From: Clostridia bacterium
GTDB lineage: Bacteria; Bacillota; Clostridia; Peptostreptococcales; Anaerovoracaceae
Length of the DNA stretch: 64,000 bases
Direction: 5' to 3'
Assembly (NCBI GenBank): GCA_910575405.1
Contig: CAJTER010000006.1
Location: 1-64,000 of the forward strand
The notes beneath the pieces are model-generated. The model was not told the origin of the DNA, did no database searches, and was given only the letters and a program-made list of their open reading frames with translations. Position 1 is the first letter of the stretch; each line of letters begins with the position of its first letter. Both the position numbers and the translations under genes were made by a program. Of this stretch, positions 3,068-62,724 are shown piece by piece.

Positions 3068-3856
3068 ATGAAACACATCAGCAAAATTATCGCCCTATGC
3101 ATGGTACTTTTCGTAGCAGGAGCTTTCACTCTCCCTACTCAATTCGCGCCTGCGGAAATTCATGCAGCATCGAAAGTTAAAATCAGCAAGACAAAGGCCA
3201 CCATGACTGTAGGTAAAACCATGCAGCTCAAAATCAAAGGCACGAAAAAGAAAGTCACATGGAGCAGCAATAAAAAATCGGTAGCTACTGTAAGCAAAAA
3301 GGGCAAAGTTACCGCCAAGAAAGCTGGAAAAGCCACTATAACAGCAAAAGTCGGGAAGAAAAAATTCAAATGCAGCGTTACTGTAAAAAAAGCAATTCCA
3401 ACGTATTATTCCGGAATGTATCGTATCGGAACTGATATGCCGGCAGGTGAATATTACTTGTTCAGCCAGAGCAATTATGGTGCCTATTTTGAAATTGACC
3501 GTGATACATCAGGCAGTCTCGACTCAATCATAGCAAATGATAATTTCAATTACAATTCGATTGTGACAGTCTCAGCAGGGCAGTACCTGAAATTAGACAG
3601 CTGTTACGCGATTCCAATAGCATACGCAAGAGTTTCAACTGCAGGTGAAGGCATGTTTAAAGTTGGCCGGGATATCTCGGCAGGTGAATATAAGTTACTA
3701 TCTACGGACGCTTTTGGCGGTTATTACGAAGTTGCAACTTCGGCCTTGCATGATATCGACAGTATCATCAGTAACGACAATTTTGAAGGTACTCAATATG
3801 TCTCTGTCCAAAATGGACAATACTTGAAACTCTCTGGATGTAAAATTGTAAGATAG
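3068..3856 (+). CDS. Secreted Big2-domain protein with two C-terminal repeats
   Basis: Residues 1-33 are a signal peptide. Residues about 36-105 form a basic Big2 (bacterial Ig-like 2) domain with the typical VTWSSNKKSVATVS core. The rest consists of two similar units (about 112-180 and 192-262), each with a G-x-F/Y-x-V/I-G-x-D-x-x-AGEY start and a GQYLKL finish. This repeat is familiar from clostridial surface and phage-carried proteins but has no assigned function. It has the same ribosome-site context (AGGAGGAATCATT) as the Ltp gene 96 bases upstream, so both are probably expressed together as surface cargo of the element. No cell-wall sorting motif is present. Confidence 0.7.
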   Translation: MKHISKIIALCMVLFVAGAFTLPTQFAPAEIHAASKVKISKTKATMTVGKTMQLKIKGTKKKVTWSSNKKSVATVSKKGKVTAKKAGKATITAKVGKKKFKCSVTVKKAIPTYYSGMYRIGTDMPAGEYYLFSQSNYGAYFEIDRDTSGSLDSIIANDNFNYNSIVTVSAGQYLKLDSCYAIPIAYARVSTAGEGMFKVGRDISAGEYKLLSTDAFGGYYEVATSALHDIDSIISNDNFEGTQYVSVQNGQYLKLSGCKIVR

Positions 3857-3960
3857 GTAAAGCGACATCCCACTAAGCGAATACTCAGGCTGCACGGGGA
3901 GAGTTGTAGGTGAATAAATAGAACCGTACTTTACAAACTATCATTAAGGAGGTGCGAGCA

Positions 3961-4506
3961 ATGCAGGCACTTAAAAAATCAACTTATACCATCGAGGATA
4001 TTTACGCTCTGCCAGATGGACAGCGGGCAGAACTGATTGACGGGGAGCTGTATATGATGAGCCCACCGGGTCGGATGCATCAAGAACTAGTCAGCGAACT
4101 GCATGCGCAGATTCATTCTTACATCAAGTCCAATCACGGGGAATGCAAGGTCTACCCTGCCCCTTTCGCCGTGTTTCTGAATAAGGATGAGCGCACCTAT
4201 GTAGAGCCGGATCTTTCTATCATCTGTGATAAAAACAAACTGGATGACCGTGGCTGCAACGGTGCTCCCGACTGGGTGATCGAGATCATTTCCCCTAGTT
4301 CCCAGCAGATGGACTACATGACCAAGCTTTTCAAATACCGAAACGCTGGTGTTCGGGAATATTGGATCGTGAATCCGAAGACTAAAACCATTCAGTCCTA
4401 TTTCTGGGACGGCGAAGAAGATTCAGCGCAATTCGCTTTCTCGGATGACGTTCCTGTCCAGATTTACGACGGCTGGAGCATCAACATAGCAGAATTGCTA
4501 AAATAA
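3961..4506 (+). CDS. Uma2-family PD-(D/E)XK nuclease-fold protein, copy 1
   Basis: The 181-residue protein belongs to the Uma2/DUF820 family, whose fold is that of restriction-type nucleases. Visible core residues are E82-P-D84 and E108 in WVIEIISPSS, followed by the conserved Arg/Trp stretch VREYWIVNP. Family members are abundant in cyanobacteria and clostridia and are presumed nucleases, but their substrate is unknown. The ATG at 3961 is preferred over GTG at 3952 because it is spaced 9 bases from AGGAGG. A close paralogue lies at 44497-45048. Position between the Big2 gene and the integrase suggests element cargo. Confidence 0.8.
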   Translation: MQALKKSTYTIEDIYALPDGQRAELIDGELYMMSPPGRMHQELVSELHAQIHSYIKSNHGECKVYPAPFAVFLNKDERTYVEPDLSIICDKNKLDDRGCNGAPDWVIEIISPSSQQMDYMTKLFKYRNAGVREYWIVNPKTKTIQSYFWDGEEDSAQFAFSDDVPVQIYDGWSINIAELLK

Positions 4507-12240: not shown

Positions 12241-13122
12241 ATGAAAGAACGGGTAAAAGCTTTTTCCATTGATTTTGTCATTCTGCTGCTGGCCTGTGCC
12301 TCCAGCGCATTTGCGGTTGTAAGCATTATGATACCCAACGGGCTGACCTTGGGCGGAATTACCGGTATTGCGCGTATCCTCCAAAAGTTCATGAATATCA
12401 ATTTTTCCATTTTGTACTATGGGCTGTCTCTCATTGTGCTAGTTTTGGTGGTTCTATTTTGGGGATGGAAGGAAGTAAAGAAAGTTCTGCTTCTTTCCGT
12501 CATGTACCCGGCCGTTCTCTTTGTCTTTGAACAGCTTTCCATTGAGCTGCTGGAAGCAGAAGACGTCCTGCTGGGGGCCGTATTCTGTGGGGTGTTTACA
12601 GGCATTTACCTGGGGCTTGTCTTCTGGCGGGGATATGCCTCGGCAGGATCGGATGCTCTGTCTAAGATTATCCGCAAAAAGCTGTTTCCCGGGGTTGCCC
12701 TTACCAAGATCCTTTTGTGCATCGATGGGGCTGTCATCATCGCTTCCGCCTTTGTATATGGCAGAAACGTGGCCCTCTATGCCCTCATCACTCAGATGAT
12801 CATTACCAAAACCTCGGAAATGATCCTCTACGGCTTTGAAGATAAAATCGTCCAGCTTACTATTATCACGGGCAAAAGCGATGAAGTGCGGGATTATATT
12901 ATCACGGATCTAGAGCGGAGTCTTTCCATCTTTGACGGAAGAGGCGGCTACTCCAACCGGGATATGCACCAACTGGTGCTCCTGTGCTCCCTAAGGGAAA
13001 GCATGCTTGTAAAGAAAAAGCTGGCTGCCATCGATCCGCAGGCCTTTGTCACCGTCACTAGGGTGGAGACCGTCTGGGGCACAGGAAGAAGCTTTAAAGA
13101 TATTCGTAAGGACAGCGAATAA
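12241..13122 (+). CDS. YitT-family membrane protein (DUF161 + DUF2179)
   Basis: The 293-residue protein has five to six membrane spans in the first 190 residues, starting with the typical NGLTLGGITGIARIL segment, and a cytoplasmic DUF2179 domain at about 210-290 (IITGKSDEVRDYIITDLERS). The YitT family is widespread in Firmicutes; a transport role has been proposed but is not established. It is a single-gene unit between divergent and convergent neighbours. Confidence 0.85.
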   Translation: MKERVKAFSIDFVILLLACASSAFAVVSIMIPNGLTLGGITGIARILQKFMNINFSILYYGLSLIVLVLVVLFWGWKEVKKVLLLSVMYPAVLFVFEQLSIELLEAEDVLLGAVFCGVFTGIYLGLVFWRGYASAGSDALSKIIRKKLFPGVALTKILLCIDGAVIIASAFVYGRNVALYALITQMIITKTSEMILYGFEDKIVQLTIITGKSDEVRDYIITDLERSLSIFDGRGGYSNRDMHQLVLLCSLRESMLVKKKLAAIDPQAFVTVTRVETVWGTGRSFKDIRKDSE

Positions 13123-59209: not shown

Positions 59210-60940
59210 TCAATCATCAAAGAAAGATTCATGTTTTTCTTCATTCAGATATTTATTCATAAGCTCATCAATATCCACATTATCATCAGGTACTGGCTTA
59301 TCCTTTTTGTTTCCAACGATTGCGGCAATGATACCGATAATAATCGCAGCAAGCCCTGCCCATTTCAAAATCTGGAGAACTTGTGGAATCATATCTCCCA
59401 TCATATCATAATCATCCGGTCCCCATTCGCCGTAGTCGATTTCATACCATTTGAGCCAGAACTGACCCAGGAATGCCATAGCGCCAGCCAGAATCAGATA
59501 TACGCCAATTCGCACCGTATCTCCTGCTGCAAGCTTCGTTTTTGGATTGCACGGATAACGGTTTGGATCGTTTTTTGACAGCCCGCCGTAGAGTTTTTTG
59601 AAAATAACATAGGCTACCGGGCCTGTAGCCGTTGCAATAAGCCCCATTACCAAATAGTCTGTTCCATTAATGAGAAGGGCAATAATCGCAATAACGATTG
59701 GAAACCCCGCATAGAAAATCAGTCCTATGTTTCCTCCCGGCATAACGAAAAGGCCTCTTTTTTTCCGTTCTTCTATTGGCAGTTTTTTGCGAAGCTTTAT
59801 GACAGCCAAAGGCAAAATGATATAAAGAGCCAGCATAAAGACAACTTCCATGCTTACCAATGTCGTAAAATCAGACTGGGCAAGGATCAATGTAACAACT
59901 GCCAGGGACAGGATACCTACATAAGGTACGCCTCTCTTTGTGCTTACTTTCACCAGGAATTGCGGACAAAGGTTGTCATCAGCAAGCACAAAGAATCCTC
60001 TTGAGCCAGATGCCAGATAAGTATTAAAAATCGCACATTGGGAAACAATTGCTATTATCAGGAATATATAGCCCCATGCTGTTCCAAGATTTGCAGTCAA
60101 TACTGTAGCATAGCCCATGGTTTCTCCTGTAAATCCTCCATCTGTAGCCCAGTTTTCCCAGCTTCCTTCTGGGAGAGATGCAAGGCCGCCCAGTGTAGGA
60201 AGTACATAGGTCAGCGCAACAAGCGGCATGGCAATCATCAGACCTTTTGGAATAACCTGAGGATTCTTTACTTCCCCCGCCATATTGGAAATACATTCGT
60301 ATCCGCAGTACATCCATACGCAGATGCAGATTCCGCCGCCAACGCCGTCAATTAAGGAGTAATCCTCTGGCATAAACGGATCCATCGGGTTCGTATTCCA
60401 GTTGAGGAGCCCTACGATAGCAACTAGTGCAAAGGCCAGTACGATTAAAATGGAAAGTATTGTACTTACTTTTCCAACTTCTTTCAATCCCATCAGATTA
60501 ATAATAGTAAAAATTAAAATCATTCCGATCTTCAGCGCATGGCTCGCAACTGTTGACATTGGGATCATCTGGCTCACATATCCAGCTACAAGGGCAACAT
60601 ATACACCGTTTGTAATATAGGTGGAAACAGTTCCCCACCAGCCTGCCTGAAAGCCCCAGAATTCGCCGAATGCCTCTTTTACCCAAACGTATACGCCGCC
60701 TTCCGATGGAAGCACGGAACCGCATTCTGCTACCAGGTTGCTGATTGGATATGCCCATATAATGGGAAAAAGAATCAGCAGCACTAGGGTCATTCCCGGA
60801 CCTGCTTCCGGTATCATTTCTTCAATACCAAAAGCGCCTGCCGCAACCAGGCAGTACAGCATAAATACAATACCTGATACTTTGATGTCATGCTTTTTCA
60901 GAGCTGCAACACCCTGAGTTTGTGTTTGATTCTGACTCAT
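59210..60940 (-). CDS. APC-family amino-acid permease
   Basis: The 576-residue membrane protein has about twelve to fourteen spans with APC features: unwound span 1 near LYCLVAAGAFGIEEMIPEAG and CGSVLPSEGGVYVWVKEAFG. It has an extra two spans near the C-terminus and an acidic tail, as in the GABA/glutamate antiporter-like subgroup. Substrate is unknown. It follows the saccharopine-dehydrogenase-like gene by 60 bases, behind AAAGGAGGTGCTGAT, so both depend on the same glycine-type riboswitch leader; glycine or a compound linked to it is therefore a candidate substrate. Confidence 0.88.
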   Translation of the reverse strand: MSQNQTQTQGVAALKKHDIKVSGIVFMLYCLVAAGAFGIEEMIPEAGPGMTLVLLILFPIIWAYPISNLVAECGSVLPSEGGVYVWVKEAFGEFWGFQAGWWGTVSTYITNGVYVALVAGYVSQMIPMSTVASHALKIGMILIFTIINLMGLKEVGKVSTILSILIVLAFALVAIVGLLNWNTNPMDPFMPEDYSLIDGVGGGICICVWMYCGYECISNMAGEVKNPQVIPKGLMIAMPLVALTYVLPTLGGLASLPEGSWENWATDGGFTGETMGYATVLTANLGTAWGYIFLIIAIVSQCAIFNTYLASGSRGFFVLADDNLCPQFLVKVSTKRGVPYVGILSLAVVTLILAQSDFTTLVSMEVVFMLALYIILPLAVIKLRKKLPIEERKKRGLFVMPGGNIGLIFYAGFPIVIAIIALLINGTDYLVMGLIATATGPVAYVIFKKLYGGLSKNDPNRYPCNPKTKLAAGDTVRIGVYLILAGAMAFLGQFWLKWYEIDYGEWGPDDYDMMGDMIPQVLQILKWAGLAAIIIGIIAAIVGNKKDKPVPDDNVDIDELMNKYLNEEKHESFFDD

Positions 60941-61000
60941 ATCAGCACCTCCTTTAAAAATCAGCTATGGAGCCGGAGCAGACCCCATAGCTGTAATGCA

Positions 61001-62314
61001 TTACTTATTTTTTGCCTGAGCAAAAATTTCTGCCATCATTTTTTTATCCTGCTGAGCCTTGTACGGTGAATCCATCTCCACGATTCCGTATTCAAAACCA
61101 GCTTCATCCATAATCTGCAGATATGGGATCGGATCAAAGTATTCCGGACCATAAACGCCGGCATCTTTCCAAATACCTCTTCCAATCAGCTCAATTCCTA
61201 CTGCTGCGCCAAATCCAGTCTGGGCAACGACTGCCTGCATATTCCAGGTCTTCATGGATTCCTGATTGTCGAAAGGCTGGTACATGAAGATTTCACGTTC
61301 TTTCCCATCCTTGATGCCCTTGCAGTGGATGCCTACGCACATTTTACCGATCATTTCATCGCCGATATCTTTTGGCTGCGGAGCGCAGGCTGCTACAATA
61401 TCTCTTGGAACAACTTTGACACCGTTTACTTCAACAGGCTCCAGGCTTCTGAGTCCCAGAGACGTAATGACTTTCAGCGCCTGTACCAGATTGTCGTCCA
61501 GGGCAATCTTGAAGGTACATTTTTCCAGTCCGTATTTTTCCAGGAATCTCGGCATTAAAACCGTTTCCTCGTGCTCAATTTTAAGCAGCGTATTCATGCC
61601 TACTCCGGCAGGCATTTCGAAGGTTTCTTCTCCTGCAAAAGGAACATCTGTAATAAAGCCCTTTTCCTTATCCCACTCTACATTTGGATTCACGCACTCA
61701 TCAAGAACCGTCCATACATTGAAACCAAAGGTAATATCATCTTCGCCTGCACTTGGGATCTCAAGGTTTCCTCCATCTTTAACGTGGATTTCCTTCAGTT
61801 CGTCAAAAAGATATTCTGCTGCGAATTTCGCGAAAACGTCTACAACGCCCGGGTCAATGCCCAGACAAATGCAGGCCATGTTTCCTTTTTCCTTCCACTG
61901 TTCATGCCGGTCAAAATTGTATTTTGCCATAGGCTCTGAAAAACTGGTTTCCAGTGTGCCGTATACAGGTGGATCGTAAGGAACAGACCAGGTTCCCATG
62001 CTCACATAATCAGCACCTGCTTCATATGCAGCATCAAAGATATTGTTGGATACAAACGGTGCAGCAGCATCCATTACAAAGTTGCAGTCCTGCTTTTTAA
62101 TAATATCAACCAGTTCATCCTTATTTTTCGCATTAAGCTGCTGAGGTGTAAAGCGCTTATCTCCCTTTAGGTGATCGCAGACTTCTTTTGCCCGCTCAAA
62201 ATCATAATCTCCTACTACAACTTTTTCCAGCCATTTTCCTTCCGGATCTCTTACCTGTAAAATACGAAGTATGGATTCTCCTACAGCTCCAGCTCCTACC
62301 AGTAACATTTTCAT
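61001..62314 (-). CDS. Saccharopine dehydrogenase-family enzyme
   Basis: The 437-residue protein has an N-terminal Rossmann domain (MLLVGAGAVGESILRIL), a central catalytic part (GIDPGVVDVFAKFAAEYLFD) and family end. Members of this group are saccharopine dehydrogenases or carboxynorspermidine synthases, which join an amino acid or polyamine to a keto compound by reduction with NAD(P)H. The exact reaction cannot be read from sequence. The start at 62314 follows AAGGAGGAAGATTATT; the open frame further upstream runs through the riboswitch and is not coding. It forms an operon with the APC permease. Confidence 0.85.
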   Translation of the reverse strand: MKMLLVGAGAVGESILRILQVRDPEGKWLEKVVVGDYDFERAKEVCDHLKGDKRFTPQQLNAKNKDELVDIIKKQDCNFVMDAAAPFVSNNIFDAAYEAGADYVSMGTWSVPYDPPVYGTLETSFSEPMAKYNFDRHEQWKEKGNMACICLGIDPGVVDVFAKFAAEYLFDELKEIHVKDGGNLEIPSAGEDDITFGFNVWTVLDECVNPNVEWDKEKGFITDVPFAGEETFEMPAGVGMNTLLKIEHEETVLMPRFLEKYGLEKCTFKIALDDNLVQALKVITSLGLRSLEPVEVNGVKVVPRDIVAACAPQPKDIGDEMIGKMCVGIHCKGIKDGKEREIFMYQPFDNQESMKTWNMQAVVAQTGFGAAVGIELIGRGIWKDAGVYGPEYFDPIPYLQIMDEAGFEYGIVEMDSPYKAQQDKKMMAEIFAQAKNK

Positions 62315-62490
62315 AATAATCTTCCTCCTTGCTTTTGGGCAGTTCTTCCCAAAACTCTTACTCAGCAGTCGGTGCTGAATACATAATGCTGCCTGTCGTT
62401 TCTTTTTTCTCCATATGCCTAGCCATGTAATCTTATGTAGTAAAGCTACAAAAAAAGAAACATACATCCACCAAACGGTGCAGCATATTT

Positions 62491-62672
62491 CTCTGTCCTT
62501 TTGCCAGTTGGTTATCTCCTCGTAGGCGTCACAATTAAGTGCTCTCTCCAAAGTCTCGTCCGATAACCTTCCTTTTGCCTGTCAGTTTCCGCAAAAATAA
62601 CTGCCACTATTCTGCATTGCTTCTTCGGCCCCCTAATTCAATAGGGTGTCTAAGGCTATCTTCATCCGAAGT
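62491..62672 (-). promoter_or_regulatory. Tandem glycine-type riboswitch
   Basis: On the minus strand two aptamer-like units follow one another. Unit 1 (about 62567-62672) has GGCCGAAGAAGCAAT and ACTGACAGGCAAAAGGA; unit 2 (about 62491-62561) has CTTTGGAGAGAGC, ACGCCTACGAGGAG and CTGGCAAAAGGACAGAG. These are the conserved blocks of the glycine riboswitch, which binds glycine cooperatively and controls transcription end. A hairpin around CACC-GTTT-GGTG followed by TTTCTTTTTTTG lies downstream (62453-62480) as the expression platform. Some positions differ from consensus, so the ligand should be tested. Confidence 0.75.
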
Positions 62673-62695
62673 ATTCAGTTTCATTATGTAGTTTT

Positions 62696-62724
62696 ATTTT
62701 AACATATGTTTTCAGAATATTCAA
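62696..62724 (-). promoter_or_regulatory. Promoter of the riboswitch operon
   Basis: On the minus strand TTGAAT (62719-62724) and TAAAAT (62696-62701) are 17 bases apart, about 20 bases before the first aptamer. The rest of the gap to the esterase gene (62725-62932) holds no gene that I can support. Confidence 0.65.

What the first reader, a model, noticed from the sequence alone, without database searches (positions are those of the whole stretch)
62315..62724. Tandem glycine-type riboswitch in front of a saccharopine-dehydrogenase-like enzyme and an APC permease
Two aptamer-like units with the conserved GGCAAAAGGA blocks precede a gene that is not part of the glycine cleavage system. Glycine riboswitches mostly control gcv genes or sodium:alanine/glycine carriers; a saccharopine-dehydrogenase-family enzyme plus permease points to an undescribed glycine-responsive route, for example reductive joining of glycine or export of a product. 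Several core positions deviate from consensus (unit 1 start, unit 2 closing block), so altered ligand choice is also possible.
Basis: partly seen in the sequence, partly recalled or inferred. Interest (0 to 1): 0.6.

Follow-up and report, generated by a model that had tools for sequence, protein, structure and literature searches.

The report
Variant glycine riboswitch before opine-type dehydrogenase
This is a member of a known but still unexplained offshoot of the glycine-sensing RNA switches; it has lost the key glycine-contact base in both sensors, probably turns on an uncharacterised NAD-linked amine dehydrogenase and an amino acid importer in anaerobic clostridia, and what it senses is unknown.

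Summary
Window 62669-62489 (minus) matches Rfam RF03166, glycine-GGAnGA, end to end (161.6 bits, E 2e-35); the ordinary glycine model scores only 38 bits on one aptamer there. RF03166 is an orphan relative of tandem glycine riboswitches. A review says variants of this kind, with mutated cores, reject glycine. Here the conserved C68-U69 pocket pair is GA in aptamer 1 and AA in aptamer 2, whereas U69 is kept in 56 of 56 ordinary glycine aptamers I checked. The same genome has an ordinary glycine riboswitch before an alanine/glycine symporter.

In 28 of 34 related leaders an intrinsic terminator begins inside the 3' strand of aptamer 2's closing helix, so ligand binding should switch transcription ON. 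Of 30 members found by pattern, 22 lie directly before orthologues of this 437-residue protein, 3 before a distant relative and 3 before the APC permease. The protein resembles carboxyspermidine dehydrogenase (catalytic HEE kept), but has Asp where that enzyme binds NADP, and no genome checked has the partner decarboxylase above cut-off. So it is probably an NAD-linked catabolic dehydrogenase with an unknown substrate.

Glycine control is unlikely; altered ligand choice is likely. The ligand is unknown. New member of a known kind.

The parts
62696..62724 (-). promoter-like sequence, TTGAAT-17-TAAAAT with TG before the second hexamer
   Evidence: a weak consensus match (7 found in the region against 5.0 expected by chance), but correctly placed about 30 nt upstream of the aptamer
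62489..62669 (-). tandem variant glycine-type aptamer, RF03166 (glycine-GGAnGA)
   Evidence: 161.6 bits, E 2e-35, full-length match
62562..62660 (-). aptamer 1; pocket dinucleotide G62583-A62582 where ordinary glycine aptamers have C/U-U
   Evidence: alignment, sequence, comparison
62491..62553 (-). aptamer 2; pocket dinucleotide A62509-A62508 within the AACCAAC block; very short P3b
   Evidence: alignment
62450..62494 (-). intrinsic terminator: stem beginning in the P1 3' strand (AGAG) of aptamer 2, followed by a T run
   Evidence: -18.2 kcal/mol; 9 pairs join the P1 strand and following bases to the arm next to the T run; the same arrangement in 28 of 34 leaders
62319..62369 (-). second conserved leader element, ACTGCTGAGTA-hairpin-AAAAGCAAGGAGGAA, which contains the Shine-Dalgarno site (AGGAGG 62329-62324)
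   Evidence: no Rfam match at E<=1
61001..62314 (-). 437-aa saccharopine-dehydrogenase-fold enzyme, closest to carboxyspermidine dehydrogenase, predicted NAD-dependent
60962..60993 (-). strong hairpin (13 bp) with a short T tail between the two genes; possible partial terminator
59210..60940 (-). 576-aa APC-family amino acid permease, probably co-transcribed
   Evidence: adjacent to the enzyme gene in several relatives

Best explanation
The leader is a tandem riboswitch of the RF03166 (glycine-GGAnGA) class. It keeps the glycine-riboswitch architecture but senses a ligand other than glycine, most likely another small amino acid or amine. Without ligand, the 3' strand of the closing helix P1 of aptamer 2 is drawn into an intrinsic terminator and transcription stops about 40 nt after the aptamer. 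With ligand, P1 is held, the terminator cannot form, and RNA polymerase reads into an NAD-linked dehydrogenase of the carboxyspermidine/saccharopine dehydrogenase superfamily and an APC permease. The system is therefore an induced uptake-and-use operon, with the ligand probably the imported compound or a product close to it. Shown here: family match, pocket substitution, overlap of terminator and P1, conserved gene association, enzyme fold and residues. Inferred: ON direction, NAD use, catabolic sense. Unknown: the ligand and the substrate.
For: RF03166 match of 161.6 bits, against 38 bits for RF00504. The U69 position is T in 56/56 ordinary aptamers from related genomes, but G-A, G-G or A-G in nearly all first aptamers and A-A in every second aptamer of the variant class (the second-aptamer A-A is part of the search pattern, but RF03166 members found independently show it too). 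PMC12060979 reports crystallography in which glycine contacts the equivalent of U81 (taken here as U69). PMC9481103 reports that core-mutated glycine variants reject glycine. The ordinary glycine riboswitch of this genome precedes an AGCS symporter. A terminator overlapping P1 occurs in 28/34 leaders. First gene in 30 pattern-found members: 22 orthologues of this enzyme, 3 a second subfamily, 3 the permease, 1 a cation efflux protein, 1 an amidohydrolase. Enzyme: CASDH-like fold, TM 0.84/0.92 with 8deb; HEE triad and E188 equivalent conserved; Asp replaces the NADP-site Arg35 in the orthologues.
Against: No ligand was tested. One or both aptamers might still bind glycine weakly. The ON direction rests on helix overlap, not on measurement; six leaders (five of one clade plus one) show no terminator by my test, so control may be translational there. 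Two orthologues lack the riboswitch although their upstream DNA is present: one has a c-di-AMP riboswitch instead, one has other leader elements; a third sits behind the permease gene in a locus without a match. NAD preference from one Asp is a rule of thumb.
Confidence: 0.72

Rival explanations
1. It is an ordinary glycine riboswitch that has drifted; glycine still induces an enzyme that joins glycine to an aldehyde, or a permease for glycine.
For: Architecture, P0 kink-turn-like leader and GGCAAAAGGA blocks are those of tandem glycine riboswitches; aptamer 1 keeps GCCGAAG; RF00504 still reaches its cut-off on aptamer 1.
Against: U69 is lost in both aptamers while it is invariant in ordinary ones; a review states that core-mutated variants reject glycine (PMC9481103); the substitutions are conserved across several families, which drift would not give; a separate ordinary glycine riboswitch exists in the same genome.
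Confidence: 0.1
2. The operon belongs to polyamine metabolism: the enzyme is a carboxyspermidine dehydrogenase and the riboswitch senses a diamine, aspartate semialdehyde or carboxyspermidine.
For: Closest structures are carboxyspermidine dehydrogenases; the HEE triad and E188 equivalent are kept; relatives include Anaerovorax odorimutans, known (own knowledge) as a putrescine fermenter.
Against: NCBIfam carboxynorspermidine synthase scores 151.7 against a cut-off of 800; no carboxyspermidine decarboxylase above cut-off in any of 18 genomes; NADP-site Arg35 is Asp and Ser144 is Val in this protein; an ON switch for a biosynthetic enzyme would be odd.
Confidence: 0.12
3. The operon serves osmotic or cell-envelope balance, the enzyme making or breaking a zwitterionic compatible solute, and the ligand is such a solute or its precursor.
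For: One orthologue (72% identical) is directly preceded by a c-di-AMP riboswitch of 86.5 bits; a member of the second subfamily is followed by a Na+/H+ antiporter-family protein, and in two members a cation-efflux protein is the first or second gene.
Against: A single c-di-AMP case; the other neighbours vary; no osmolyte gene was identified.
Confidence: 0.06

Closest known systems
glycine-GGAnGA riboswitch aptamer, Rfam RF03166 (probably from the glycine variants of Weinberg et al. 2017, PNAS 114:E2077; original not readable here)
   Same: Full-length match over both aptamers, far above the gathering score; same conserved blocks.
   Different: Nothing essential; this is a member. The ligand of the class is not known from the papers available here.
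Tandem glycine riboswitch, RF00504 (gcvT motif)
   Same: Two aptamers, P0 kink-turn-like leader, GCCGAAG and GGCAAAAGGA blocks, expression platform after aptamer 2.
   Different: Pocket dinucleotide C/U-U replaced by purines in both aptamers; P3b of aptamer 2 very short; not upstream of gcv or AGCS genes.
Carboxyspermidine dehydrogenase (B. fragilis, PDB 8DEB; also 4INA, 4RL6, 8H4Z)
   Same: Fold (TM 0.84/0.92 for 8DEB), catalytic His-Glu-Glu, E188 equivalent, DPG motif.
   Different: About 23-25% identity; Asp in place of the NADP-binding Arg35; Val for Ser144; NMGTW in place of DTANY; no partner decarboxylase above cut-off in 18 genomes.
L-lysine 6-dehydrogenase (PDB 3ABI) and saccharopine dehydrogenase
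   Same: Same superfamily fold.
   Different: More distant (TM 0.66/0.80 and lower); these lack the HEE sequence according to PMC10413350.

Membership tests
RF03166 glycine-GGAnGA riboswitch | covariance-model score over the gathering threshold along the whole model | tested here: met
   161.6 against 110 bits, positions 1-177 of 177
RF03166 glycine-GGAnGA riboswitch | non-glycine core in the aptamers | tested here: met
   GA and AA at the C68-U69 positions
RF00504 glycine riboswitch | best-scoring family of its clan | tested here: not met
   only 38.0 bits and only on aptamer 1; RF03166 wins the overlap
RF00504 glycine riboswitch | conserved U69 glycine-contact base | tested here: not met
   A in both aptamers; T in 56/56 ordinary aptamers
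RF00504 glycine riboswitch | selective glycine binding | not testable with these tools
   needs in-line probing or calorimetry
transcriptional ON riboswitch | terminator stem sharing the P1 3' strand | tested here: met
   window -18.2 kcal/mol and 28 of 34 leaders; direction inferred, not measured
carboxyspermidine dehydrogenase | fold and His-Glu-Glu catalytic triad with E188 | tested here: met
   residue roles from PMC10413350
carboxyspermidine dehydrogenase | NCBIfam equivalog score | tested here: not met
   151.7 bits against a cut-off of 800
carboxyspermidine dehydrogenase | NADP-selective site (Ser34, Arg35, Thr36) | tested here: not met
   Asp36 of this protein aligns with Arg35 and is conserved in orthologues
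carboxyspermidine dehydrogenase | partner carboxyspermidine decarboxylase in the genome | tested here: not met
   TIGR01047 over cut-off in 0 of 18 genomes
saccharopine dehydrogenase | lysine/2-oxoglutarate activity | not testable with these tools
   Pfam domains only; enzyme assay needed

The most novel reading that the evidence does not exclude
The RF03166 RNAs are a riboswitch class for a small amino acid or amine that no known riboswitch senses, and the enzyme they control is an undescribed NAD-linked dehydrogenase that uses that compound. The near-exclusive pairing of this RNA with this enzyme would then be the key to both unknowns at once.
Probability: 0.4. Interest if true: 0.75.

Novelty: new member of a known kind. 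Interest (0 to 1): 0.45.

Why it matters
RF03166 is an orphan riboswitch class whose ligand was not found in any paper available here. Cultured species carry it (Anaerovorax, Sinanaerobacter, Terrisporobacter, Peptacetobacter, Neobittarella, Floccifex), where earlier work noted mostly metagenomic examples of glycine variants (PMC6944388). In most cases the RNA precedes one small family of dehydrogenases, so one enzyme assay panel and one RNA binding panel would inform each other.

Tried and rejected
Glycine-cleavage or AGCS context: rejected; the AGCS symporter of this genome has a separate ordinary glycine riboswitch. Ordinary RF00504 membership: rejected by score and pocket. A general second riboswitch at the Shine-Dalgarno site: the element occurs once per genome and, apart from one match that lies in an unrelated region and looks like chance, only before this enzyme in 198 family genomes, so it is local to this gene. 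A lysine riboswitch in the leader of an orthologue without RF03166: suggested to me by AGAGGUGC, but no Rfam match at E<=1. Reading the ligand from paralogues of the enzyme: the 36-44% paralogues sit beside AraC-type regulators and mixed genes and gave no substrate. Three pattern matches in non-Firmicutes (L039, L040, L062) were set aside as chance. The 2017 paper that described core-altered glycine variants is not in the library, so I cannot say which gene associations it already lists.

Full report
Observation. The finding is in the sequence at the stated place. On the minus strand, window 62669-62489 matches Rfam RF03166 (glycine-GGAnGA) over all 177 model positions with 161.6 bits (gathering score 110, E 2e-35 for 64 kb, repeated). 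The generic glycine family RF00504 scores 38.0 bits (cut-off 32) and covers only aptamer 1 (62665-62557). The two GGCAAAAGGA blocks are at 62579-62570 and 62505-62496. A promoter-like sequence lies at 62724-62696, and the ATG of the 437-residue protein is at 62314 behind AGGAGG at 62329-62324.

What the RNA is. RF03166 is a member of the glycine riboswitch clan. The paper that described core-altered glycine variants (Weinberg et al. 2017) is not in the library. A review, PMC9481103, says that variants with mutations in the cores of one or both aptamers reject glycine and have probably changed specificity. PMC6944388 says that most such examples were metagenomic. That RF03166 is one of those variants is my inference from the name and the cores.

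Pocket. I numbered the canonical aptamer from memory of the Vibrio structure; PMC12060979 reports that crystallography placed the glycine against the equivalent of its U81 and against G69, and equating its U81 with U69 is my reading. In 56 ordinary glycine aptamers from related genomes the two bases before CAGG are CT (29) or TT (27), so the second is always U. In the variant leaders the first aptamer has GA, GG or AG in nearly all cases and the second has AA. In the window these are G62583-A62582 and A62509-A62508. The AA of aptamer 2 lies inside the pattern I used to collect leaders, so its constancy in that set is by construction; the members found independently with the Rfam model show it too. 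A few leaders of the second enzyme subfamily (L095, L065) keep a U in aptamer 1, so those RNAs may have two different pockets.

Same genome, separate glycine sensor. An ordinary glycine riboswitch (57.1 bits) lies at G000:C19:56753-56849 and precedes an alanine/glycine:cation symporter. Glycine sensing in this organism is therefore already covered by an intact device.

Expression platform. After aptamer 2 the RNA can form a stem that starts in the AGAG of the P1 3' strand and ends in a T run (62494 to about 62450, -18.2 kcal/mol). The same overlap is present in 28 of 34 distinct leaders. P1 and the terminator exclude each other, so ligand binding should prevent termination: an ON switch by established riboswitch logic, not measured here. 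The six leaders without it are five of one clade and one other.

Genes controlled. A scan of 84,980 genomes with an aptamer 2 pattern gave 33 loci; three in non-Firmicutes look like chance. Of the other 30, the first gene is an orthologue of the window enzyme in 22, a distant second subfamily of the same superfamily in 3, the APC permease in 3 (in two of these followed by the second subfamily), a cation-efflux protein in 1 and an amidohydrolase-family gene in 1. Records include Anaerovorax odorimutans, Sinanaerobacter, Terrisporobacter, Peptacetobacter, Neobittarella and Floccifex. In 198 genomes of the family only 10 carry a close orthologue of the enzyme. Those with a riboswitch match are G000, G059, G066 (two), G195, G035 (two) and G047. 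Four others: G061 has a different leader, G168 has a c-di-AMP riboswitch (86.5 bits) directly before the gene, G121 has the enzyme behind the permease with no match in the 9 kb read, and in G062 the contig ends about 90 bases upstream.

The enzyme. AlphaFold2 gives a confident model (mean pLDDT 89.2). The nearest solved structures are carboxyspermidine dehydrogenases (8deb TM 0.84/0.92, 4ina 0.81/0.88), then lysine dehydrogenase 3abi (0.66/0.80). PMC10413350 assigns catalysis in the B. fragilis enzyme to His228, Glu229, Glu230 and Glu188, with a relay through Ser144. The first four are conserved here as H248, E249, E250 and E206; Ser144 aligns with Val158 in this protein. The NADP site of that enzyme uses Ser34, Arg35 and Thr36; in this family the Arg35 position is Asp36, invariant in the 17-sequence alignment, which by the usual Rossmann rule means NAD(H). 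The equivalog model for carboxynorspermidine synthase scores far under its cut-off (151.7 against 800), and none of 18 genomes has a carboxyspermidine decarboxylase above cut-off. So it works like a C-N bond dehydrogenase of this superfamily, but it is not filed as carboxyspermidine dehydrogenase.

How it most likely works. An imported amino acid or amine, or something made from it, binds the tandem aptamer, prevents termination, and induces its own dehydrogenase and importer. A 13-bp hairpin with a short T tail between the two genes (60993-60962) may reduce expression of the permease. Ligand and substrate remain unknown; the evidence does not single one out.

Other leader features. Directly upstream of the start codon is a second conserved element, ACTGCTGAGTA-hairpin-AAAAGCAAGGAGGAA, whose hairpin changes in sequence and length while remaining a hairpin in 11 sequences (z between -0.8 and -6.1, weakest in the window itself) and which can pair around the Shine-Dalgarno site. 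It was found only before this enzyme, apart from one chance-like match. In three relatives a further leader with its own terminator precedes the tandem aptamer, and in a fourth it replaces it. No Rfam family matches either.

Verdict. A well-supported new member of a known orphan riboswitch class, with a clear mechanical model and a strong gene association, and with the decisive question, the ligand, open.

Noticed in passing
window 62369-62319 (minus): Conserved element ACTGCTGAGTA-variable hairpin-AAAAGCAAGGAGGAA around the Shine-Dalgarno site, found only before this enzyme in Anaerovoracaceae-type genomes; no Rfam match. Possibly a separate translational control element.
   Followed up: partly
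L167:1330-1500; L089:2425-2553; L097 about 12254-12411; L042 about 3829-3983: A further conserved leader with its own terminator lies upstream of the tandem aptamer in three relatives, and replaces it in a fourth (G061) that lacks RF03166. No Rfam match.
   Followed up: partly
L169:1377-1502 / L178:8502-8627: An orthologue of the enzyme gene is directly preceded by a c-di-AMP riboswitch (RF00379, 86.5 bits), hinting at an osmotic or envelope link.
   Followed up: partly
L147, L150-L162: Many paralogues (36-44% identical) of the enzyme in the same genomes, often next to a large AraC-type regulator of about 510 residues.
   Followed up: partly
L097, L038, L042 (inside aptamer 1): Aptamer 1 of these leaders is enlarged by inserted sequence, tandemly repeated in L097 (CGGAAAAATGCCAAAGACCGGCTAAAGCCGGGGCATTAACGTATGGCACC).
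   Followed up: no
G000:C19:56753-56849 (L099): Ordinary glycine riboswitch in front of an alanine/glycine:cation symporter in the same genome.
   Followed up: yes
window 60993-60962 (minus): Strong hairpin with a T tail between the enzyme gene and the permease gene.
   Followed up: no
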